Below are positions 21,532 to 36,237 of a DNA stretch of 64,000 bases, piece after piece; within the stretch, counting starts at the first letter, position 1; each line of letters begins with the position of its first letter. Made by a program: the position numbers and the translations under genes. The DNA is from Syntrophus gentianae (GTDB taxonomy: Bacteria > Desulfobacterota > Syntrophia > Syntrophales > Syntrophaceae), in assembly GCF_900109885.1 (NCBI RefSeq), contig NZ_FOBS01000002.1, forward strand, positions 124,001 to 188,000. Reading direction: 5' to 3'. The notes under the pieces were generated by a model. It was not told the DNA's origin. It did not search any database and saw only the letters and a list, made by a program, of their open reading frames with translations.

Positions 21532-22137
21532 ATGAAAAAATCAGAGTCTTATAGCGCATTCAAAAGGAAAGGAATCTTTTTCGTCTGCCTGTTTTCTCTT
21601 CTTCTTTTCGCTTCCAATGCTTTTGCCGATCTGTACTCTTTCAACCTCATCTACGCCAATGCGGAGCTCAACGGCGGTGCGATGGACAATTACGCGACGG
21701 TGACGGTGAATCTGACCGCCGAAGATCAGGCAACGATCAACTTTGAAAGTCTCAACGATTACAGACTTCAGAACCGACTCGGCGTGCAGGTCAACGCCTT
21801 TGTTTTCGGCGTTTCGAACTGGACCGATGGAGACTTCGTAAATCAGAAGAATTTCAGTGAGTTCGGAGATTTTAATGTCTCCTTCGACAAAATAGGCAAG
21901 ATAACGTCTTTCAGTTTTAACGTAACGAATAACTCGACGAGCCATTGGACCCTGGCGGACCAGGTTCTGCGCATCAACGATTGGGGTTACCTGGCCGTCG
22001 CGCACATCGTCCCCCAGCAGGGCAATTCAGGCTACGCCGCCGGTGACGGCAGTGCTGTTCCTCTTCCGGGCGCCGTTTGGCTTCTCGGCAGCGGCCTGGT
22101 CGGCCTCGCGGCAATCCGCCGTCGTCGTGCCGCATGA
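21532..22137 (+). CDS. Secreted VPLPA-CTERM protein, tandem copy 1
   Basis: 201 aa. A signal peptide (FFVCLFSLLLFASNAFA), a mature domain beginning DLYSFNLIYANAELNGGAMD, and the tail VPLPGAVWLLGSGLVGLAAI plus RRRRAA. ATG 21532 has AAGGAGGT seven bases upstream. It is a duplicate of the gene at 22302, sharing the whole architecture, including a conserved LGVQVNAFVFGV segment and RINDWGY near the end. No enzyme motif seen; an extracellular or surface structural role is likely (inference). Confidence 0.85.
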   Translation: MKKSESYSAFKRKGIFFVCLFSLLLFASNAFADLYSFNLIYANAELNGGAMDNYATVTVNLTAEDQATINFESLNDYRLQNRLGVQVNAFVFGVSNWTDGDFVNQKNFSEFGDFNVSFDKIGKITSFSFNVTNNSTSHWTLADQVLRINDWGYLAVAHIVPQQGNSGYAAGDGSAVPLPGAVWLLGSGLVGLAAIRRRRAA

Positions 22138-22301
22138 TTTTTCCTTCCGCTCCATTTTATATCTTTAGGAGTAGCCGAAGGATCCGGCAGTGCAGGCTCT
22201 TTTTCTTCCTGATCTTTGCTTCACCTACCTCGCCTATCCTGACCGATTGAAATACAGTCGGTTTCAAACTCAAACAAATTTTTATTTTAAGGAGGTATTT
22301 A

Positions 22302-22949
22302 ATGAAAAGCTCAAATGATTGTCGGGGATTCAGCAGCAAGAGGATTTTTTTCGTCTGTCTCCTTTCTCTTCTCCTTTTCGCTTCCAATGCTTCTGCTGAT
22401 CTTTACTCTTACAACCTCATGTACGCCAGTCCGGAGCTCAACGGCGGCAAGACGTTCAATTACGGGATGGTGACGGTGAATCTGACTTCTCAGGATCACG
22501 CAACGATCACCTTTAAAAGCCGGGGCGCTTATTTGCTGGAAAACCGACTCGGTGTGCAGGTCAACGCCTTTCTGTTCGGCGTTACAAATCTGACGGAGGG
22601 AAGTTTTGTGGCACAGAAAAATTTCAGTGGCTTTGGCGATTTCAATGCCTCCTTCAGCGGCCTGAGCGACTTGACGTCTTATAGTTTCAACTTAACGAGA
22701 AAAAGTTATCTCAATGATAAAGGACATTGGACCTCGGCGGCTCAGGTTCTGCGCATCAACGATTGGGGTTATCAGGCTATTTCGCAAATCGACCCGGAGA
22801 CGGGCAACTCAGGCTATGCCGCCGCCTCTACCTACTTCATGGGGCGTGGCGTTCAAAGCATGAGCGCCGTTCCTCTTCCGGGTGCCGTCTGGCTTCTCGG
22901 CAGCGGCCTGGTCGGTCTCGCAGCCATCCGCCGTCGTCGTGCAGCATGA
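22302..22949 (+). CDS. Secreted VPLPA-CTERM protein, tandem copy 2
   Basis: 215 aa, clear duplicate of the preceding gene: signal peptide FFVCLLSLLLFASNASA, DLYSYNLMYASPELNGGKTF, LGVQVNAFLFGVTNLT, VLRINDWGYQAI and the identical tail VPLPGAVWLLGSGLVGLAAI. It differs by a short insertion before the tail (YFMGRGVQSMSA) and around residue 130. The Shine-Dalgarno block TTTATTTTAAGGAGGT is shared with copy 1, so the duplicated unit includes upstream and 3' sequence. No separate strong promoter was seen; read-through from copy 1 is plausible. Confidence 0.85.
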   Translation: MKSSNDCRGFSSKRIFFVCLLSLLLFASNASADLYSYNLMYASPELNGGKTFNYGMVTVNLTSQDHATITFKSRGAYLLENRLGVQVNAFLFGVTNLTEGSFVAQKNFSGFGDFNASFSGLSDLTSYSFNLTRKSYLNDKGHWTSAAQVLRINDWGYQAISQIDPETGNSGYAAASTYFMGRGVQSMSAVPLPGAVWLLGSGLVGLAAIRRRRAA

Positions 22950-24810: not shown

Positions 24811-24855
24811 AAGGAGCGCTTGCCGGAGACCTCGGTCATCCGGCAAGCGCTCCTT
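24811..24855 (+). terminator. Terminator of gdhA
   Basis: AAGGAGCGCTTGCCGGA pairs perfectly (17 bp) with 24839-24855 around an 11-nt loop, followed by TCTTTTT. A clear intrinsic terminator, about 80 nt after the gene. Confidence 0.9.
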
Positions 24856-25127
24856 TCTTTTTCCCTCCTCATACCGAGTTTTATTCAAAAGAGAACAAGG
24901 CGGCGAGGAACCGACAACGAAACCAGCCCAGTTATCCGAAGAAAGGCAACTTGGTGTCATTCACCAAGACACAAATCGGTAAATAAGTTACCTGATCCAA
25001 AGAAATATGTCTGTTTATGCTCATGGAAATGTGGTATTTTTCAACTTTATTGCCAGTATAGAAATTATTTTTTATCGGCAGTTAACATTTACGATCAGCA
25101 CCGGAGCAATCTATCAGGGAAATCCAT

Positions 25128-27494
25128 ATGGACAGACAAGACCAGAAGTACCAGGCACTGATCGGAGAAAATACCGATTTGAAGCGGAAAATCCGGGAAT
25201 TGGAAAACTTCCGGACGGAACGGCAGAAAATGGACGATGCCCTTTTGGAAAACGAAGCCACCTATCGCATGATCGCGGAAAACACTGCGGACATTATCCG
25301 TATCCTGGATATGGACCTGCGGTGCACCTATATCAGCCCCTCTGTTTTACGAATCCGTGACCTCACCATTGAGGAGGCGTCAAAACAAACCCTCAACGAG
25401 ATATTTCCCCTGGAATCCCTGAAACATATTCGGGATGTCTTCAAGGAAGAGTTGAAGCTGGAAGCCACCGGAACGGCAGATCCAGACAGATTTCGAACCG
25501 TGGAAACGGAAGTGTATAAAAAGGACGGCTCTCGAATCTGGATGGAGATCGTCTTTTCCTTTTTGCGGAACAGAAACGGCAAGCTCATCGGGATTCTGAG
25601 CGTGTCCCGGGACATCACTCAACGCAAGGCCGCGGAGGTTGCTCTCAGGGAAAGCGAGGAAAAGTTCCGCGCCCTGGTGGAGAACAGTCGCGATATGATC
25701 ATGCGTTTTGATCGGAACCACCGCTACCTTTATGTCAACCCGGCGATAGCGGAGCTGAGTGGAATCCCTGCCGGTGAATTTCCGGGAAAAACAGATGAAG
25801 AACTGGGGTTTCCGAAAAATATCTGCCCCGGTTGGCACGAAGAACTCGAGCAGTCTTTTCGCTCCGGACAGGTCCATCGCCTGGAATTCCTTCACCCCGA
25901 TGGTCGATGGATCGACTGGATGTTTATGCCCGAGGGAGACTCATCCGGGCAGGTCACGGCGGTCATCACATCGGCTCGCGATATTACTGAACCCAAAAAG
26001 AATGAAGCCCTGCTGAGTTCCCTGTTTCAGGCCGCCCCACTCGCCGTCTATGTAGCCGACGGGGATAGACTGCTGATCAAAGTCAATGATTATGCCTGTG
26101 AGACCTTTGGGTATCCACCGGAGGAAATGTTGGACCGAAATTCCCGCTTCCTCTTTTTCAGCGATGAAGATTACACCGAAGCAGGGAAGACGATTTTTTC
26201 ATCAGATTCCGCGACAAAAGAGTTTCGAATGAGGAGAAAGAACGGAGAGGAAATCTGGGCTCTGATCAACAGATCCTATCTCAACGGCAGGGACGCTTCC
26301 GCGGGATTCATCGTCATCGTGCAGGATATCACAGCCCGCAAAGCCCTTGAAGACCAACTCCGGCAGGTCCAGAAGATGGAGGCCATCGGCCAGCTGGCCG
26401 GCGGCATAGCCCATGACTTTAACAACATATTGCAGGCCATCCTGGGTTATACCCAGATGCTGATGCTTTCCCTCGCACCGGAGGATAAGAACCGCGCCAC
26501 GTTGAGGGAGGTGGAAAAGGCCGGAGAGAAAGCGGCGGTGCTGACCCGCCAATTGCTTGCCTTCAGCAGACGGCAGGAACTTCAACTCGGGCCGCTTGAC
26601 TTGAACCGGACCATCGATGATCTGATGAAGATGCTCCATCGTCTGATCGGCGAAAACATCGAGTTGACGCTATTGCCCGGTCAGGATTTATGGATGGTGC
26701 ACGCCGACGCCGGGCAGATGGAACAGGTCATCATCAATCTCTGCGTCAATGCCAGGGACGCCATGCCCAAGGGAGGGCGCCTTTCCATTGAAACCAGGAA
26801 TGTCCAGTTCGGTGACGATTTCTGCGCCGGGCATGAATGGGCAAGGCCGGGCAGGTACGTACAGCTGAGCATTGCCGATTCAGGATGCGGCATGGATCAG
26901 GAGACGAAAAGCAGGATATTCGAGCCTTTTTTTACCACGAAAGAAGAGGGGCGCGGTACGGGTTTGGGCCTCGCTACCGTTTATGGCATCGTGCGGCAGC
27001 ATGACGGAATGATCCATGTCGCCAGCGAAACAGGAAAAGGTTCCGAATTCAGCATCTATCTGCCAATCACCGAACGTACGGAAGGAGAACTCCTGGCAGA
27101 AACCCGGGAACCTGTTCCGGGAGGTCATGAGACCATTCTCCTGGCTGAAGACGACGAGCCTCTCCGTTTTCTCGCCACGGAAATTCTCAAACTGGCCGGC
27201 TACCGTGTTCTTGCTGCCGTCGATGGCGAGGATGCCATGCGTTTGTACCGGGAGCATGAAAAAGAGATTGATCTTTTGCTGATGGATGTTGTGATGCCCC
27301 GGAAGAGCGGTTTTGTCGTTCTTGATGAACTTCGCACCGCCCGTCCGGATATCCGTTGTCTTTTCATGAGTGGATACAGCCAAAATGCCAAACAAACGGA
27401 CCTCATCCTCAAGCAGGGATACCAGCTGATCAGGAAACCATTCAACAGCTCGGACTTATTGAGAATCGTGCGAAAGGAGCTGGATCGCTCCTAG
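25128..27494 (+). CDS. Hybrid sensor histidine kinase 1 (3 PAS, HK, receiver)
   Basis: 788-aa cytoplasmic hybrid kinase without membrane helices. Order: short coiled coil (5-40), PAS module A (about 42-165), PAS C (177-290), PAS D (296-405), HisKA with phospho-His429 in [15 protein letters not shown], HATPase (about 530-650; [32 protein letters not shown]) and a C-terminal receiver (about 670-788; acidic AEDDEP, acceptor Asp in LLLMDVVMPRKSG, FMSGYS, IRKPF). It is the first of three tandem paralogues. Upstream 270 nt separate it from the gdhA terminator. No separate output regulator is linked. Confidence 0.92.
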   Translation: MDRQDQKYQALIGENTDLKRKIRELENFRTERQKMDDALLENEATYRMIAENTADIIRILDMDLRCTYISPSVLRIRDLTIEEASKQTLNEIFPLESLKHIRDVFKEELKLEATGTADPDRFRTVETEVYKKDGSRIWMEIVFSFLRNRNGKLIGILSVSRDITQRKAAEVALRESEEKFRALVENSRDMIMRFDRNHRYLYVNPAIAELSGIPAGEFPGKTDEELGFPKNICPGWHEELEQSFRSGQVHRLEFLHPDGRWIDWMFMPEGDSSGQVTAVITSARDITEPKKNEALLSSLFQAAPLAVYVADGDRLLIKVNDYACETFGYPPEEMLDRNSRFLFFSDEDYTEAGKTIFSSDSATKEFRMRRKNGEEIWALINRSYLNGRDASAGFIVIVQDITARKALEDQLRQVQKMEAIGQLAGGIAHDFNNILQAILGYTQMLMLSLAPEDKNRATLREVEKAGEKAAVLTRQLLAFSRRQELQLGPLDLNRTIDDLMKMLHRLIGENIELTLLPGQDLWMVHADAGQMEQVIINLCVNARDAMPKGGRLSIETRNVQFGDDFCAGHEWARPGRYVQLSIADSGCGMDQETKSRIFEPFFTTKEEGRGTGLGLATVYGIVRQHDGMIHVASETGKGSEFSIYLPITERTEGELLAETREPVPGGHETILLAEDDEPLRFLATEILKLAGYRVLAAVDGEDAMRLYREHEKEIDLLLMDVVMPRKSGFVVLDELRTARPDIRCLFMSGYSQNAKQTDLILKQGYQLIRKPFNSSDLLRIVRKELDRS

Positions 27495-27642
27495 CTGCCG
27501 ATCCGGAGACCATCGCTCATGACCACTGACATATGAAAGTGTTAAAATAAAGACGGTTTTTTCTTGTTGCAAATCTTGCTGATTCCGCGAACTTCCCTTC
27601 TCCTCCGGCAGAAGTGGGAGCATCGAGCCGTAAGGGTGGCAC

Positions 27643-30399
27643 ATGAAGATACAAGATAAGGTACAGGATAAGGAATGTCAGCAGCTCAGGGATGAAATCC
27701 GCACCTTGAAGCAGGATATTCAAGATTTGAAACGGTCCAACAGGGAACTCCAGGACAGCAACAAAGCCCTCCTGGAAAGCGAGTCGAAATATCGATTCAT
27801 CACCGACCATACCGCGGAAATTATCCGCGTTATGGATGCGGATATGCGGTGCATCTATGTAAGCCCATCCGTTTTTCAAATCCGCGGCGTTACCGTTGAA
27901 GAGGCGATACAAGAAACCTTCGCGCATTTTGTTTCTCCGGCATCCAATCAACTCATCCTGTCGATCTTCGCGGAAGAGAAGGCACGGGACACCGCCGGAG
28001 CGACCGATTCCAACAGGGTCAGAACCTTTGAAGCGGAAGTATACAGAAAGGATGGTTCTCTTCTCTGGATGGAGGTCAGTTTTTCCGTTGTCCGGAACAA
28101 AAGCGGCGAGTTCGGCGGAGTGGTCACGGTAGCGCGGGATATCAGCAAGCGAAAAAAGCTGGAAGAGGAATTGAAAACGTCGGAGCAGAGCCTCCGCACG
28201 ATTTTTGACAATACCCATGATGCCATCTTTATCCATGACCTTGAAGGGCGAATCCTGGACTGCAACCAGAAGATGCTGGATTTATACGGAGTCACTCGAG
28301 AACAGGCCCTTTCGATGCATATTCTCCACAATTTTTCATCCGCGGACAACGATCTGAAACAGGAGGCGGATCGATGGGACCGGGTCATGAATGGGGAAAC
28401 GATCACCTTTGAATGGAAGGCGAAACGGCCAAACGACGGCTCCGTTTTCGATGTCGATGTCGCCCTCAAACGGATCGATCTGGACAGCGGCCCGGTCGTC
28501 CTGTCCAATGTCCGGGATATCACCCAGCGTAAAGCCGCGGAGGCCGCTCTGCGGGAAAGCGAGGAGAAGTTCCGCGCCCTGGTGGAGAACAGTCGCGATG
28601 CCATCATGCGCGTCGATCGAGACCACCGCTACATTTATATGAATCCCGTGGTAGAGCAGATATCCGGAATCCCCCCCGAGGCCTATTTAGGCAAGACCTT
28701 TGAAGAGATGGGATACCCTCAGGAACTCTGCACGCACTGGCACGAAATGGCGGAACGGATTATTACCTCCGGGGAGGTCATCCGTATGGAGTTCCAGCTT
28801 CCCACTGGACAGTGGATCGATCAGATTTCCATTCCGGAAAAAGACGCCTCCGGACAGGTCACCGCCATCACCGCTGCAGGACGTGACATTACAGAAAGCA
28901 AACAGAACGCACTCCTGTTTCAAACCCTCTTCGATCTGACGCCCCTCGCCATCTGTGTCGCCGACGGGAGCAGGATCTTTACGCAGGTCAATGACTTTGC
29001 CGTGATGACCTTTGGTTATCCCCGGATAGAGATGATCGGCCGCAGCCCCCGTTTCCTCTATTGCAGCGATGAGGACTACGAGGCGGCGGGGAAGGCGCTG
29101 TACTCGGCAGACGAAGCGATACAACAGTTCCGGATGAGGCGAAAGAATGGAGAGGAAATATTGGTCTTGCTCAACCGTTCCTACCTTAACGGCACGGACG
29201 CGTCCGCCGGATCGATTGTCGTCCTGCAGGATATCACAGCCCGGAAAGCCCTTGAGGAACAACTGCGTCAGGCCCAGAAGATGGAAGCCATCGGCCAACT
29301 GGCAGGGGGGCTGGCCCATGACTTCAATAATATTTTACAGGCCATCCTGGGTTATACCCAGATGATTCTCCTTTCCCTCGAACCGGGGGACAGGAATCGC
29401 GGTAAGCTGGAGCAGGTCGCCAAGGCCGGAGAGAAAGCGGCCGTACTGATCCGCCAATTGCTTGCCTTCAGTCGGCGGCAGGTGCTTCAACTCGGTCCGC
29501 TGGACTTGAACTCAACCATCGAGGATCTGATAAAGATGCTTCACCGCCTGATCGGCGAACACATCGATCTGCACCTCAAACCAGGCGCTGCGTTATGGAC
29601 GGTGAACGCCGACCGGAGCCAGATGGAACAGGTGATCATCAATCTCTGTATCAATGCCCGGGATGCCATGCCCGAGGGGGGACGACTTAGCATTGAAACG
29701 CGGAACATCCAGCTCGACGATGACTATTGCGCCCGGAATGACTGGGCGAAACCGGGGCGGTATGTACAGTTGAGCATTATGGATTCCGGCTGCGGCATGG
29801 ACCCGGAAACGAAGAACAAAATCTTCGATCCCTTTTTTACCACCAAGGATCAGGGACAGGGAACCGGCCTCGGACTGGCAACCGTCTACGGCATCGTTCG
29901 TCAGCACGAGGGAATGATCCATGTCTACAGTGAACCCGGCAAAGGTTCCCTGTTCAGCATCTACCTGCCGGTCACCGAACGGACGAAAGATGAGACGATC
30001 GAGGAACCGCAGGAACCTGCTCCGGGAGGTCACGAGACCGTTCTCCTGGCGGAGGACGATGATCTCCTCCGTTTTCTTGCCACGGAAATTCTCAATCTGG
30101 CCGGCTACCGCGTGCTTGCCGCCGTCAATGGCGAGGATGCCTTGCGCTTGTATCGGGATCATGCGCACGAGGTCGATCTGTTGCTGACGGACGTCTTGAT
30201 GCCCAAAAAAAGCGGCCGCGCCGTCTATGATGAAATCCACGCCGAGAATCCGAATATCCGGTGTCTTTTTATGAGCGGCTACAGCGAAAACGCCGTGCAC
30301 ACCAACTTTATTCTCGATAAGGGATTGCACTTGATCCAGAAGCCATTCAAGGCTTCAGATTTACTGAGATTACTGCGCCAGGAGCTGGATCGTTCCTGA
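27643..30399 (+). CDS. Hybrid sensor histidine kinase 2 (4 PAS, HK, receiver)
   Basis: 918 aa, 130 longer than its neighbours because it carries four PAS modules: A (about 45-165, FITDHTAEIIRVMDADMRCI), B (about 180-300, [20 protein letters not shown]), C (about 307-420) and D (about 427-535). HisKA (His about 559, [20 protein letters not shown]), HATPase ([23 protein letters not shown]) and receiver (AEDDDL, LLTDVLMPKKSG, FMSGYSENA, QKPFKA) follow. All catalytic residues are present. Start ATG 27643 follows a weak AAGGGTGG. It contains every module found in either neighbour. Confidence 0.92.
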   Translation: MKIQDKVQDKECQQLRDEIRTLKQDIQDLKRSNRELQDSNKALLESESKYRFITDHTAEIIRVMDADMRCIYVSPSVFQIRGVTVEEAIQETFAHFVSPASNQLILSIFAEEKARDTAGATDSNRVRTFEAEVYRKDGSLLWMEVSFSVVRNKSGEFGGVVTVARDISKRKKLEEELKTSEQSLRTIFDNTHDAIFIHDLEGRILDCNQKMLDLYGVTREQALSMHILHNFSSADNDLKQEADRWDRVMNGETITFEWKAKRPNDGSVFDVDVALKRIDLDSGPVVLSNVRDITQRKAAEAALRESEEKFRALVENSRDAIMRVDRDHRYIYMNPVVEQISGIPPEAYLGKTFEEMGYPQELCTHWHEMAERIITSGEVIRMEFQLPTGQWIDQISIPEKDASGQVTAITAAGRDITESKQNALLFQTLFDLTPLAICVADGSRIFTQVNDFAVMTFGYPRIEMIGRSPRFLYCSDEDYEAAGKALYSADEAIQQFRMRRKNGEEILVLLNRSYLNGTDASAGSIVVLQDITARKALEEQLRQAQKMEAIGQLAGGLAHDFNNILQAILGYTQMILLSLEPGDRNRGKLEQVAKAGEKAAVLIRQLLAFSRRQVLQLGPLDLNSTIEDLIKMLHRLIGEHIDLHLKPGAALWTVNADRSQMEQVIINLCINARDAMPEGGRLSIETRNIQLDDDYCARNDWAKPGRYVQLSIMDSGCGMDPETKNKIFDPFFTTKDQGQGTGLGLATVYGIVRQHEGMIHVYSEPGKGSLFSIYLPVTERTKDETIEEPQEPAPGGHETVLLAEDDDLLRFLATEILNLAGYRVLAAVNGEDALRLYRDHAHEVDLLLTDVLMPKKSGRAVYDEIHAENPNIRCLFMSGYSENAVHTNFILDKGLHLIQKPFKASDLLRLLRQELDRS

Positions 30400-30439
30400 C
30401 CGCCGCTCCTGAGGAGCATCCCCAGCACAAAGGAAGCCT

Positions 30440-32806
30440 ATGAACGCACAAGACACGGATTATCAGGAACTTATCGAAGAAATCTCCAGATTGAGACAAA
30501 AAAACGAGGACCTGGAGCGGCTTTTAGCAGAGCGTCCATCCATCGACAACATGCTCCGTGAGAGCGAAGAGAGATTGAGGACATCGGACCAGGCCCTCCG
30601 CACGATTTTTGACAACACCCATGACGCGATTTTTATCTTTGACCTCAACGGACGGATCCGGGACTGCAACCAGAGAATGCTGGACCTATACGGCGTTACA
30701 AGGGAACAGGCCCTGTCGATGCATATCCTCCACGATTTTTCCTCACCGGACAACCAGATGGATCAGGAGCCGGATCGCTGGGACCGGGTCATGAAGGGGG
30801 AAATGATCACCTTTGAATGGAAGGCGATGCGGCCCAACGACGGCTCCGTTTTCGATGTTGAAGTAGCTCTCAAACGGATCGATCTGGACAGCGGCCCGGT
30901 CATCCTCTCCAATGTCCGGGATATCACCCAGCAAAAAGCCGCCGAGGGCGCTCTGCGGGAAAGCGAGGAGGCGTTCCGCGCCCTGGTGGAGCACAGTCCC
31001 GATGCGATCCTCCGCCTTGACCGAAACCATCGCTACCTCTATGCCAATGCCGTCTCAGAGGAACATACCGGGATCCCCCCCGAGGGATTTCTCGGCAAGA
31101 CCTTTGAAGATTTAGGGCTTCCCGAGGAATTGTGCTCCCAGTGGCACGAGTCCGTTGAGCGGATTTTTCTTTCCGGAAAGATTGAACGCAGTCAATACCA
31201 GCTTCCCAATGGCTTGTGGATCGATCTGATCCGTATCCCGGAAAAGGACGCTTTCGGGCAGGTCAAGGCCGTCATGAGCGCAGCGCGTGACATCACCAAA
31301 AGCAAAGAAAACGAAATCCTGTTCCAAAGTCTGTTCCATTCGGCGCCCCTGGCCATCATCGCCGTCGATGAAAACAGGATCTTGACACAAGCCAACGACA
31401 ATAACTATGTGACCCTCGGTTATCGGCCGGAAGAGATGGTTGGACGCAACACTCGTTTCCTCTATTTCAGCGATGAAGACTACCAGGCGTCAGGACAATC
31501 GCTGAGCTCAGCGGATTTCACACCCAAGGAGGTCCGGCTGAGGCGGAAAGATGGAGAACCAGCCTGGCTTCTGATGACCCGGTCGTATCTGAACGGCAGG
31601 GACGCGTCCGCCGGAATGATCGTCGCCTCGCAGGACATCACGGCCCGCAAGGCCCTTGAAGAGCAGCTGCGCCAGGCCCAGAAGATGGAGGCCATCGGCC
31701 AGCTGGCCGGGGGCGTGGCCCATGACTTCAACAACATTTTGCAGGCCATCCTCGGCTATACCCAGATGATTCTCCTTTCCCTCGGACCCGATGACGAGAA
31801 TCGCGGCAAGCTGGAACAGGTCGCCAAGGCCGGAGAAAAAGCGGCGGCGCTGACCCGACAGCTGCTTGCCTTCAGCCGGCGTCAGGTGCTTCACCTCGGT
31901 CCGCTGGACTTGAATTCGACCATCGATGACCTGACAAAGATGCTCCACCGCCTCATCGGCGAAGACATTGAGTTGATTTTTCTCCCGGACTCCGCGTTAT
32001 GGACGGTGAACGCCGACCGGAGCCAGATGGAACAGGTGATCATCAATCTCTGCATCAACGCCCGGGATGCCATGCCCGAGGGGGGACGACTGACCATTGA
32101 AACTCGAAACATCCAGTTCGATGATGACGATCGCGCCCGTTATGACTGGGCGAAACCGGGCCGGTATGCCCAGCTGAACATTACGGATACCGGCTGCGGC
32201 ATGGACCTGGATACGAGGAGCAAGATCTTCGATCCCTTTTATACCACCAAGGAACAGGGGAAGGGGACCGGTCTCGGCCTGGCGACCGTCTACGGCATCG
32301 TTCGGCAGCACGAGGGGATGATCCATGTCTACAGCGAACTCGGGCAAGGGTCCCTGTTCAGCATCTACCTGCCCATCACCGAACGGACGGAAGAAAAAAC
32401 CCTTGTGGAACCGCAGGGACCTGCCCCGGGAGGTCACGAGACCATACTCCTGGCAGAGGACGACGAGCCCCTCCGTTTTCTTGCCGAGGAAATTCTCAAA
32501 ATGGCCGGCTACCATGTCCTTGCCGCCGTCGACGGCGAGGATGCCTTGCGCGTGTACCGGGAACATGCCCAAGAGGTCGATCTGCTGCTGACGGATCTCG
32601 TGATGCCCAAGAAAAGCGGCAGAGCCGTCTATGAGGAGATTCGCGCCCAAAACCCCGATATCCGTTGTCTTTTCATGAGTGGATACAGCGAAAAGGCCGC
32701 GCACCCGAACTTTGTTCTCGATGAGGGATTCCATCTGATCCAGAAGCCCTTCAAGGCCGCAGATCTGCTGAAAACCCTGCGTCAGGAGCTGGATCGTCCC
32801 TCATAA
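30440..32806 (+). CDS. Hybrid sensor histidine kinase 3 (3 PAS, HK, receiver)
   Basis: 788 aa. Coiled coil (about 8-45), PAS B (about 50-170, [20 protein letters not shown]), C (about 178-290), D (about 297-405), HisKA (His about 428, [20 protein letters not shown]), HATPase ([28 protein letters not shown]) and receiver ([33 protein letters not shown]). It begins 40 nt after copy 2 with AAAGGAAGCC before ATG 30440 and is closest to copy 2 over most of its length. Lacking module A, it presumably responds to a different combination of signals (inference). Confidence 0.92.
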
Positions 32807-32927
32807 TATCGAATTGCTTTCATAACTGTTTTCCTCCCATTCCCTCCGAATTCTTCGTCAATCTCCCTTCTGCAAAAATATTTCGATATGTCACAAATGT
32901 CATAACATATTGATTCTACAGAAGTTA

Positions 32928-32957: not shown

Positions 32958-33141
32958 TGACTTCAATTTAGATAATAGAATTATGGGTAGCAATCCAACA
33001 TTGTGCACTCCGATCCGCCTGTTCTAAAGAGAGCCTCCATGGACGGCGGACACTGGGTGTTGCCGGAAACGGCAGCGCCTCCCGGATTTGGGAAGGAGAA
33101 AGCGATGAAAGGGGATTATATATCGAAAGGAGTTTAGGGTC

Positions 33142-36100
33142 ATGGATGTAAGCAGAAGAGGATTCCTGAAGATTGCCGGCGGCACCCTCGCAGCCGGCGG
33201 CATCGGCTTCAGGCCTTCATTGGCGCATGCTGAACCGTTGAAAATCCAGTATGGCAAAGAAACCACAACGATCTGTCCATACTGTTCCGTGGGATGCAGC
33301 ATCATCGTCACAACACGGAAAGGGAAAGTGATCAACACGGAGGGCGATCCGGACAGTCCCATCAATCGTGGTTCCCTCTGCACCAAAGGCGGGTCCATCT
33401 ATCAGTTGTCGGCCAATGAAAACCGTCTCGGCAAACCCCTTTACCGGGCCCCTTACGCCACGGAATGGAAAGAGGTGGACTGGGAGTGGACGCTGGAACG
33501 GATTGCGGAAAATATCAAAAAAAGCCGCGACAAGAGCTTCCGGGCAACCAATGACAAGGGCGAGGTGGTAAACCGGACGGAAGGAATCGCTTCCGTCGGC
33601 AGCGCTGCCATCGACAATGAAGAGTGTTTCGTGCACCAAAAATTTCTGCGGGGGTTAGGTCTGGTCTATATTGAACACCAGGCCCGTATTTGACACAGCC
33701 CAACTGTACCGGCTCTGGGAGAGTCGTTCGGACGCGGCGCAATGACGAATCACTGGATCGATATCCGGAACAGTGATGTAATTTTAATCATGGGCAGCAA
33801 CCCTGCCTCCAACCATCCCGTCGCCTTCAAGTGGATCACCGCCGCCATGGAAAAAGGGGCCAAGGTGATCTGCGTAGACCCACGGTTCACGCAGTCGGCG
33901 GCGAAGTCCCATGTCTACGCCCCTCTCCGCTCGGGGACGGACATCGCTTTCCTCGGCGGAATGATCAAGTACATTATTGAAAACAAGCTCTACTTCGAGG
34001 AGTACGTCAAGAACTACACCAATGCCTCCTTCCTCGTGAATCCCGATTTCAAGCTCCCCGGCGACAACAACGGCGTCTTCTCGGGGCTGACGGACGGGAA
34101 GTACGACAAGGCCACCTGGTCGTACCAGACCGAAGGGGACGGGCTGATCAAGAAGGATCCCACACTTCAGGATCCCAACTGCGTCTTCCAGCTCCTGAAA
34201 AAGCACTATTCCCGCTACACCCCGGAAATCGTCAACAAGATCACGGGGACGCCGGTTGACAAACTCATCGAGGTCTACAAGCTCTACGGTTCGACAGGAA
34301 CGCCGGACCGGGCAGGCAACGAGCTCTATGCCATGGGCTGGACCCAGCATACCATCGGCACCCAGAATATCCGGACCATGTGCATCATCCAGCTCCTCCT
34401 GGGCAACATGGGCATCCCCGGCGGCGGCGTCCAGGCCATGCGTGGCGAGTCCAACGTTCAGGGCTCCACGGATCACGGGCTGCTGTTCCACATCTGGCCC
34501 GGTTATCTCAGCACGCCCAAGGCGTCTCTGGCGACCCTGGCGGCGTACAACGAAAAAGAGACCCCGACAACCAAGGAACCCAACAGCCTCAACTGGCAGA
34601 AGAACAAACCCAAGTATGTGGCAAGTTTCCTTCGGGCCATGTACGGGACGAACGCTACCCTGGACGAGGCCTACAACCTCCTTCCCAAAATCGACGACGG
34701 GGCCAACTACTCCTGGCTCAACCTCTTCGATCAGATGTACAAGGGAAAGTTCACGGGTTTCTTCGCCTGGGGAATGAACCCCGCGTGCAGCGGCGCCCAT
34801 TCCAACAAGGTCCGCCAGGCCATGGCGAAACTGGACTGGGTGGTCAATGTCAATCTCTTCGACAATGAAACCGGCTCGTTCTGGCGCGGTCCGGGCATGG
34901 ATCCCAAAAAGATCAAGACGGAAGTCTTCATGCTGCCCTGTTGCGCCTCCATCGAGAAGGAAGGGAGCATCATCAACAGCGGCCGTTGGAACCAGTGGCG
35001 CTACAAGGCCGTCGACGCCCCGGGCGTGGCCCTGCCCGACGGTGACATCACCTCGGAGATCTACTTCAAGGTGAAGGAACTTTACGAAAAGGAAGGCGGC
35101 CCCCACAAGGAGGCCCTCACGAAGCTGACCTGGAACTACGGCACGAAGACCTTCTCCGGACATTTCCATTTCGATCCCCATGCCGTGGCCAAGGAAATCA
35201 ACGGCTTCTTTCTCGAAGACAAAACGGTGGAAAATCCCACGAAGAAGGGTGAGATGAAGGAGTTCAAGAAGGGCGATCCCGTGCCGACTTTTGCCTGGCT
35301 GCAGGATGACGGCTCCACGTCCTCCGGATGCTGGGTCTACTGCGGCTCCTATGCCGACAAGGGCAACATGTCAGCCCGCCGCGACGGGAAGAAAGACCCG
35401 ACGGGCATCGGCCTCTACCCCGAGTGGGCATGGGCCTGGCCGGTCAACAGACGGATTATCTATAACGGCGCCTCCGTCGATCCGACGGGGAAGCCCTGGA
35501 GTGCAAAGAAAACAGTCATCAAGTGGACCGGCGACAAGTGGGTCGGCGATGTCCCGGACGGCGTGGGCGATCCCGGGTCCGGAAGGCCTCCCTTCATCAT
35601 GAAACCCGACGGCGTGGCGAGTCTCTTCGGTCCGGGTCTGGCGGACGGCCCCTTCCCCGAGCATTACGAACCTCTGGAGTGCCCGGTGGAGAAAAACCTT
35701 CTGTCCCCCCAGAAGAGCAACCCGACCATCAAGCGGTTCGACAAACCCGGCGTCGGTTCCGATATGGACAAGTATTCCGGCATCGATTCCTGCGATCCGA
35801 AATACCCCTTCATTTGTGCGACCTACCGCATCAGCGAGCACTGGCAGACCGGTCTCCAGACCCGGTGGTGCCCCTGGCTCTCCGAGATGCAGCCGGAAAT
35901 GTGGTGCGAAATGAGCAAAGAACTGGCGAAAGAGCGGGGCATTGCCAACGGCGACATAGTCATCGTCAGCTCCCCTCGGGGCCAGGTGGAGTGTGTGGCC
36001 ATCGTCACACCCCGTTTCAAACCGTTCAACATCAACGGAAACATTCTCCATGAGGTCGGCATCCCCTGGCATTTCGGGTGGATTACGACAAAGGATCGGC

Positions 36101-36237
36101 CTTACAACCCCGGCGACAAGAAGGCGGAGGTCTTCACAAAGGGCGATGCGGCCAATCTCCTGGTGCCGACGATCGGGGACGCCAACACGACGATTCCCGA
36201 AAGCAAGGCCTTCATGGTTAATGTGGTCAAGAAGTAA
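33142..36237 (+). CDS. fdhA: Formate dehydrogenase, selenocysteine-containing catalytic subunit
   Basis: One 1031-aa protein read through UGA at 33691-33693 as selenocysteine 184. The sequence on both sides (YIEHQARI-Sec-HSPTVPALGESFGRGAM) is the FDH-N/FDH-H active site, and the frame is unbroken. Tat signal with RR at 5-6 (SRRGFLKIAGG) cut near AHA-30; [4Fe-4S] ligands Cys45, Cys48, Cys52, Cys80; then the molybdopterin domains and a C-terminal MPT-binding domain. Length matches FdnG (1015 aa). It oxidises formate in the periplasm and passes electrons to FdhB/FdhC. A reader ignoring Sec sees a 183-aa fragment and an 831-aa fragment; that split is not real. Confidence 0.95.
33691..33730 (+). 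promoter_or_regulatory. UGA-Sec codon and candidate SECIS hairpin
   Basis: The UGA is followed 20 nt later by GGCTCT (33711-33716), loop GGG, AGAGTC (33720-33725), a 6-bp stem with one G-U. Bacterial SECIS elements place an apical stem-loop at this distance, within the coding sequence, to recruit SelB. Structure inferred by eye. Confidence 0.7.

What the first reader, a model, noticed from the sequence alone, without database searches (positions are those of the whole stretch)
25128..32806. Three tandem hybrid kinases built from shuffled PAS modules
Copies carry PAS modules A-C-D, A-B-C-D and B-C-D in front of nearly the same kinase-receiver core. Copy 2 is the union of the others, so copies 1 and 3 look like module losses (or copy 2 a recombinant). 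The kinases could heterodimerise and integrate signals.
Basis: seen in the sequence. Interest (0 to 1): 0.55.

Follow-up and report, generated by a model that had tools for sequence, protein, structure and literature searches.

The report
Mosaic PAS-array hybrid kinases in Syntrophus
Three neighbouring sensor-kinase genes in a Syntrophus bacterium belong to a small family in which whole sensing modules are lost, doubled or replaced, and in which the shared output half has in some copies been recombined independently of the sensing half.

Summary
K1 (25128-27494), K2 (27643-30399) and K3 (30440-32806) are open, cytosolic-looking hybrid kinases with PAS arrays A-C-D, A-B-C-D and B-C-D before a shared HisKA-HATPase-REC core. 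A, B, C and D are four PAS lineages. Four more paralogs (K4-K7) lie elsewhere in the genome and five relatives in two congeners; the single-contig congener has no close member.

ABCD is the likely ancestor: it recurs at two other loci here and in a congener, and with a doubled C in another. K1 shows an in-frame A/C junction at a 10-bp sequence shared by K2's A and B ends. K3 looks like a K2 relative without A. But K2 is not a K1 x K3 recombinant: its A and C are sisters of those in the kinase behind the same GDH gene in a congener. K2's HK-REC core is not. In two within-genome pairs synonymous divergence falls 2.2- and 3.4-fold across the core; no between-genome pair comes near that. So cores recombine between paralogs (gene conversion or core replacement). 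Inside the window this is shown only weakly: K1/K3 exceeds background, K2/K3 and K1/K2 do not. An empty site in a congener and a Moco riboswitch argue against dedicated formate-dehydrogenase control. Ligands and output are unknown.

The parts
25128..27494 (+). K1: hybrid histidine kinase, PAS A-C-D, HisKA-HATPase, REC
25242..25619 (+). K1 PAS A (not the sister of K2 A)
25608..25617 (+). K1 A/C junction CGGGACATCA: A-type sequence to the left, B-C-linker-type sequence to the right
25620..25988 (+). K1 PAS C
25989..26333 (+). K1 PAS D
26334..27119 (+). K1 HisKA-HATPase core
27120..27485 (+). K1 receiver domain
27643..30399 (+). K2: hybrid histidine kinase, PAS A-B-C-D, HisKA-HATPase, REC
27769..28146 (+). 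K2 PAS A (sister of A in the GDH-linked kinase of G002)
28147..28524 (+). K2 PAS B (sister of K3 B)
28525..28893 (+). K2 PAS C (sister of C in the GDH-linked kinase of G002)
28894..29238 (+). K2 PAS D (placement differs between DNA and protein trees)
29239..30024 (+). K2 HisKA-HATPase core (sister of K3 core)
30025..30390 (+). K2 receiver domain
30440..32806 (+). K3: hybrid histidine kinase, PAS B-C-D, HisKA-HATPase, REC
30551..30928 (+). K3 PAS B
30929..31297 (+). K3 PAS C
31298..31642 (+). K3 PAS D
31643..32428 (+). K3 HisKA-HATPase core
32429..32794 (+). K3 receiver domain
24862..32880 (.). block that is absent between GDH and fdn in congener G001, where 336 bp without detected kinase similarity lies instead
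24811..24855 (+). perfect 17-bp inverted repeat behind the GDH gene (terminator-like); the kinase block begins just after it
   Evidence: the T-rich tail is visible

Best explanation
The three genes belong to a family of cytosolic PAS-array hybrid histidine kinases, found here only in Syntrophus, that descends from a PAS A-B-C-D kinase. Shown by sequence: whole PAS units come and go at the junctions between units (B missing in K1, A missing in K3, C doubled in two congener kinases, A replaced by PocR-PAS-PAS in K7, with K7's last added PAS also before B in K6). Also shown for some copies: the HisKA-HATPase-REC core has a history separate from the sensors. Inferred: the agent is homologous recombination between paralogs, that is in-frame deletion between similar PAS ends and gene conversion or core replacement. 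Inferred function: each protein is a dimer that reads several cytoplasmic signals through stacked PAS domains, sets autophosphorylation of the HDFNN histidine, and passes phosphate through its own receiver to a separate HPt or regulator shared by the family. Recombination would keep that output common while inputs diversify.
For: PAS types A-D are four separate sets. ABCD is present in K4 and K5 and in a frame-split G001 kinase syntenic with K4; A-B-C'-C-D in two G002 kinases. In K1, sequence left of CGGGACATCA resembles the A end and sequence right of it the B-C linker; K2's A-B and B-C junctions share the exact 10-mer CGGGATATCA at that place. Sensors keep locus orthology: K2 with G2a (kinase behind GDH in G002) for A (100/99) and C (92/91) (100/99 and 99/95 in protein). 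The core does not: K2+G2a is rejected for HK DNA (AU p=2e-73) and REC DNA (6e-7) and for HK-REC protein (2.9e-6), while the G2a, G2b and G2c cores group at 100/100. Synonymous divergence pS, sensors against core: G2a/G2b 0.640 against 0.186, K6/K7 0.486 against 0.219, each with 0 of 2000 shuffles as large. The drop averages 0.098 in 23 within-genome pairs and 0.042 in 32 between-genome pairs; the largest between-genome drop is 0.127, and 3 of 23 within-genome pairs exceed it (G2a/G2b, K6/K7, K1/K3). The G2a/G2b change falls near residues 640-653 of the G2a frame, at the end of PAS D. Catalytic H, N and G-box residues and REC D and K are at least 90% conserved in 13 rows.
Against: In the window the core signal is weak: K1/K3 1 of 2000 shuffles, K2/K3 34 of 2000 with a drop (0.106) inside the between-genome range, K1/K2 419 of 2000; a C+D against core contrast for K2/K3 is stronger (44 of 20000) but post hoc. 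26 of 32 between-genome pairs also show a drop, and two of them are nominally significant (K5/G1b 8 and K7/G1a 31 of 2000), so a mild synonymous constraint in the core is likely. Of the 18 clade tests, 7 did not reject (B twice, D twice, and HK or REC three times), and none was corrected for multiple testing or named before the trees were seen. K4 and its syntenic G001 kinase give no conflict: A supports them, and the core does not reject them (p=0.36 in HK DNA, 0.11 in protein). D gives conflicting placements for K2 (DNA with K3 89/92; protein with G2a 82/89). G001 and G002 are fragmented (170 and 580 contigs) and G002 has 6% contamination. Which part moved, core or sensors, is not resolved. 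No partner gene is linked, so the common output is inferred.
Confidence: 0.65

Rival explanations
1. Plain tandem duplication of one ABCD kinase followed by deletion of B in copy 1 and A in copy 3, with no exchange; core similarity simply reflects purifying selection.
For: K2 and K3 agree in B, D (DNA) and core; the junctions fit deletions; K1+K2+K3 cores form a weakly supported group (75/91 in protein; HK DNA 85/88); the K2/K3 and K1/K2 synonymous drops are within background.
Against: A rejects K1+K2 as sisters (AU p=0.001) and C rejects K1+K2+K3 (p=0.033). Synonymous sites, not only amino acids, drop across the core in G2a/G2b and K6/K7. Sensors of K2 pair with another genome while its core does not.
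Confidence: 0.25
2. Copy 2 is a recombinant that united the A of copy 1 with the B-C-D of copy 3.
For: K2 and K3 share B and core as closest relatives.
Against: K2's A is sister to G2a's A (100/99), K1+K2 for A is rejected (p=0.001), K2+K3 for C is rejected marginally (p=0.047). ABCD occurs at other loci and genomes.
Confidence: 0.04
3. The kinases are a dedicated formate or molybdate sensing system for the formate dehydrogenase operon directly downstream.
For: K3 ends 335 bp before the fdnG frame, same strand.
Against: G001 has GDH and fdn next to each other without the kinases. G003 has GDH and fdn far apart and no close kinase. The fdn leader holds a Moco/W riboswitch (65.5 bits).
Confidence: 0.05
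4. Assembly artefact: repeated kinase cores were misjoined or collapsed.
For: Four of the five congener contigs with family kinases end in or close to one (G001 C148; G002 C220, C245, C102), and K6 runs into a contig end.
Against: The copies in the window differ at 35-70% of synonymous sites in each shared module and lie on a 242-kb contig. Misjoining would swap partners but would not create three similar but distinct cores in G002.
Confidence: 0.03

Closest known systems
CckA-type PAS-HK-REC hybrid kinases (PDB 5idm; 5idj)
   Same: Best solved relatives of the core: residues 541-779 match 5idj (named only 'Histidine kinase' in the answer) at E 2e-57, and 5idm, named CckA, at 4e-35. That 5idj is CckA too, and the CckA domain layout, are recalled.
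   Different: Three to four PAS units; no transmembrane-like segment by hydropathy (maximum 1.2-1.5 over 19 residues against 2.3 for the neighbouring cytochrome). CckA partner genes were not searched.
Lineage-specific expansion and input-domain shuffling of histidine kinases
   Same: Paralogs made by duplication carry different input domains. [quoted passage not shown]
   Different: That paper takes direct shuffling between proteins as unlikely and names gene conversion only as a possibility. Here a junction sequence, synonymous profiles and conflicting domain trees point to exchange between kinase paralogs.
Neighbouring PAS hybrid kinase in the same genomes (L026 13702-16212 and its G001 counterpart)
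   Same: PAS-PAS-PAS-HK-REC, next to K4 in conserved order.
   Different: 33-37% identical to K1-K3; 75% identical to its G001 counterpart.

Membership tests
PAS-containing hybrid histidine kinases (HisKA, HATPase_c, REC) | HisKA with phospho-acceptor His, HATPase_c, C-terminal REC | tested here: met
   Pfam above cut-off for all three domains in K1, K2 and K3; His, Asn, Gly-box and REC residues at least 90% conserved in 13 rows
PAS-containing hybrid histidine kinases (HisKA, HATPase_c, REC) | PAS input domains | tested here: met
CckA | core closest to CckA among solved structures | tested here: inconclusive
   second-best match 5idm is named CckA; the best, 5idj, is named only 'Histidine kinase'
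CckA | acts through ChpT/CtrA in the cell-cycle relay | not tested
   no search for ChpT or CtrA was made; not filed as CckA
Gene families under concerted evolution (gene conversion) | paralogs within a genome more alike than positional orthologs, at synonymous sites, in a bounded tract | tested here: met
   G2a/G2b and K6/K7 core against sensors; K2/G2a conflict
Gene families under concerted evolution (gene conversion) | same, for K1-K3 in the window | tested here: inconclusive
   K1/K3 1 of 2000 and above the between-genome range; K2/K3 34 of 2000 but inside that range; K1/K2 419 of 2000
Mobile element | terminal repeats, transposase or integrase with the block | tested here: not met
   the two flanks share no exact repeat over 8 bp, direct or inverted, which is the shuffled average; no transposase or integrase among the Pfam-scanned neighbours, though several had no Pfam match at all

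The most novel reading that the evidence does not exclude
Syntrophus runs an evolving repertoire of sensor kinases: one HK-REC output is kept common across scattered loci by repeated gene conversion that stops at the last PAS, while PAS units upstream are deleted, doubled and replaced at repeated linkers. All members would feed one relay, so new input combinations are created without rewiring.
Probability: 0.28. Interest if true: 0.62.

Novelty: new variant of a known kind. Interest (0 to 1): 0.4.

Why it matters
How histidine kinases gain new inputs without losing their partner is a standing question in two-component evolution. This family offers natural module deletions, a doubled module and core exchanges among close relatives, with one breakpoint at the end of the last PAS before the DHp. 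That makes domain shuffling between paralogs directly testable and marks junctions that nature tolerates, which is useful for engineering chimeric sensors.

Tried and rejected
K2 as a recombinant of K1 and K3: rejected by the A tree. Formate-dehydrogenase control: argued against by the empty site in G001, the separate genes in G003 and the Moco riboswitch. Mobile element: no shared repeats at the block ends (one search looked at each flank alone) and no mobility gene among the scanned neighbours. Kinase remnant in the G001 gap: best blastx E 0.61. A linked partner: five HPt matches in the genome, all on contigs other than those of K1-K7. Distant family members: a pattern-based genome-contig scan gave one Syntrophus contig and two weak unrelated hits; in 155 genomes of the order five passed 1e-130, three of them Syntrophus and two at 36-37% identity (in which only the best 5 candidates per genome were scored); (60 relatives, up to 15 candidates each, 1e-120) G048 also matched, at 50% identity over residues 501-917. 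Nothing outside the order was searched with the genome search. Literature searches for gene conversion or concerted evolution in histidine kinases, for domain shuffling and two-component evolution and for Syntrophus kinases (44) gave no listing that describes this pattern; I saw listings with abstract beginnings, and passages of PMC4603909 only.

Rows dropped or cut: G1bc_D (frame-broken) was left out of the D trees and the PAS tree, but its usable codons are in the pS counts; K6_E was left out of the PAS tree; K7n_B was cut to 97 codons. The shuffle figures printed for pairs with unlike N-termini include misaligned parts and are not used; replace them. No fold search was run with the K2 model.
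Full report
What is there. The window lies at 124001-188000 of a 242-kb contig of a 3.7-Mb genome in 71 contigs. A congener record is named Syntrophus sp., and contig G002:C220 has the same length and match as that record, so the genus is Syntrophus by inference. K1 (25128-27494), K2 (27643-30399) and K3 (30440-32806) are read in one direction with gaps of 148 and 40 bp. Each has PAS domains, HisKA, HATPase_c and a C-terminal receiver, no stop inside and no transmembrane-like stretch by hydropathy. The AlphaFold2 model of K2 (13 rows, mean pLDDT 79, pTM 0.36) starts with a long helix, then four PAS-like repeats joined by helices, the two-helix DHp, the ATPase and the receiver. The domain order is sound; with that pTM the overall pose is not.

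Modules. Splitting at the conserved PAS-end motif gives A-C-D, A-B-C-D and B-C-D. In a tree of 42 modules each of A, B, C and D is one lineage. Its bootstrap had not fully settled, and the tool warned of long-branch joins, in part involving the two K7-only PAS units. The finding would have been refuted by unrelated modules; it is not.

The family. The genome holds four more close paralogs: K4 on contig C5 (67% identity to K2 over its full length), K5 on C20 (59%), K6 on C45 and K7 on C2. K4 and K5 are A-B-C-D. K7 carries PocR-PAS-PAS before B and is frame-split inside B. K6 runs off a contig end but carries the same preceding PAS (74% identity over 198 shared residues that also include B). Congener G001 has two members: L013 (G1a), and one split over two frames in L030 (G1b). 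The L030 kinase is syntenic with K4: two further kinases and the gene between are conserved at 75-79%. Congener G002 has three: L031 (G2a), L032 (G2b) and the partial L033 (G2c). L031 and L032 carry a doubled C module, A-B-C'-C-D. C' groups with the C of K6 and of L013 as a 125-residue subtype (100/98; 100/97). The single-contig congener G003 has no match better than E 2e-78. Among 155 genomes of the order, five passed 1e-130: this genome, G001, G002 and two at 36-37% identity (only the best 5 candidates per genome were scored).

Where the block sits. G001 has GDH and the fdn operon side by side; window 24862-32880 is replaced there by 336 bp with no detected kinase similarity. The block begins just after the terminator-like repeat of GDH. 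In G002 a family kinase (G2a) also follows GDH (95% identical) directly. So this site was occupied before the two lineages split, or was filled twice. Whether G001 lost the block or never had it is open. The block's flanks share no repeat beyond chance.

How copies 1 and 3 arose. ABCD at three loci here and in a congener makes ABCD the likely ancestor. At K1's A/C junction the left side is A-type and the right side B-C-linker-type; the switch lies in CGGGACATCA, and K2's two junctions share CGGGATATCA at that spot. This fits an in-frame deletion between similar PAS ends, and equally an exchange with the same outcome. K3 begins with an N-terminal coil and then B, whose nearest relative is K2's B (99/96). 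K1 is probably not a trimmed K2: for A, K1+K2 is rejected (p=0.001), and K1+K2+K3 is rejected for C (p=0.033). Where K1's modules belong instead is not settled, as DNA and protein trees differ.

Sensors and core have different histories in part of the family. K2's A and C pair with those of G2a, the kinase at the same site in G002 (100/99 and 92/91; 100/99 and 99/95 in protein). The cores do not: K2 goes with K3, and the three G002 cores go together, with K2+G2a rejected in DNA and in protein (p=2.9e-6). D is undecided. Of the 18 clade tests, 11 rejected at 0.05 and 7 did not; they were not corrected for number. Synonymous divergence separates recombination from selection. G2a/G2b show 0.640 in sensors and 0.186 in the core, and the change falls at the end of PAS D. 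K6/K7 show 0.486 and 0.219. K1/K3 show 0.660 and 0.473; K2/K3 0.455 and 0.349; K1/K2 0.557 and 0.515. Background: the drop is positive in 26 of 32 between-genome pairs (mean 0.042, largest 0.127) and in 23 of 23 within-genome pairs (mean 0.098). Two between-genome pairs are nominally significant, K5/G1b (8 of 2000) and K7/G1a (31 of 2000). Core exchange is therefore strong for two pairs, moderate for K1/K3, and not above background for K2/K3 and K1/K2. A post hoc contrast of C+D against the core in K2/K3 gives 44 of 20000. The syntenic pair K4/G1b shows no conflict and a drop of only 0.015. L013 does conflict: a flanking gene is 92% identical to K7's neighbour, but its D goes with K4 (99/97) and its core rejects K7 (p=0.0005).

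How it likely works. Established for the families (recalled): PAS stacks change the DHp dimer through connecting helices, the ATPase phosphorylates the DHp histidine, and phosphate moves to the receiver and often on to an HPt. Here the catalytic residues are conserved and no partner gene is linked; the genome has five HPt matches, one in a 128-residue open frame. DHp identity is 82-93% among K1, K2 and K3 and 75-93% among K1-K7, so shared partners and mixed dimers are plausible but untested. I consider a common relay with diversified inputs most likely, at about even odds.

Verdict. The kinases are of a known kind. What is unusual is a readable record of module loss, module doubling and core exchange among paralogs. 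A myxobacterial survey (PMC4603909, passages read) treats domain shuffling as rare and gene conversion as a possibility only. My searches listed no paper describing it for histidine kinases, in a library that lacks most subscription papers.

Noticed in passing
32996-33114: Moco/tungsten riboswitch (RF01055, 65.5 bits, full length) directly upstream of the formate dehydrogenase operon.
   Followed up: partly
33142-36237: Formate dehydrogenase alpha subunit split by an in-frame TGA at 33691-33693, probably selenocysteine; the reading through it is continuous. An FeS subunit and a cytochrome b561 family protein follow.
   Followed up: partly
21532-22949: Two neighbouring secreted-looking proteins, 64% identical, with a C-terminal VPLPGAVWLLGSGLVGLAAIRRRR tail that looks like a PEP-CTERM/VPLPA sorting signal (label recalled; no Pfam match).
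   Followed up: no
L029:8874-12580 and L030:4196-6974: Two family kinases are frame-split in their assemblies (in PAS B and in PAS D); pseudogenes, phase variation or sequence errors were not told apart.
   Followed up: no
PAS C modules, e.g. 28525-28893: A Cys is present in 12 of 13 C modules and a His four residues on in 10 of 13 (LCxxWHE); possibly a cofactor or metal site, untested (read from the alignment).
   Followed up: no
L033:3282-3543: Stretch 78% identical to the window's riboswitch and fdnG start (32998-33258) lies behind a partial family kinase in G002, before a different flavin/FeS protein.
   Followed up: no
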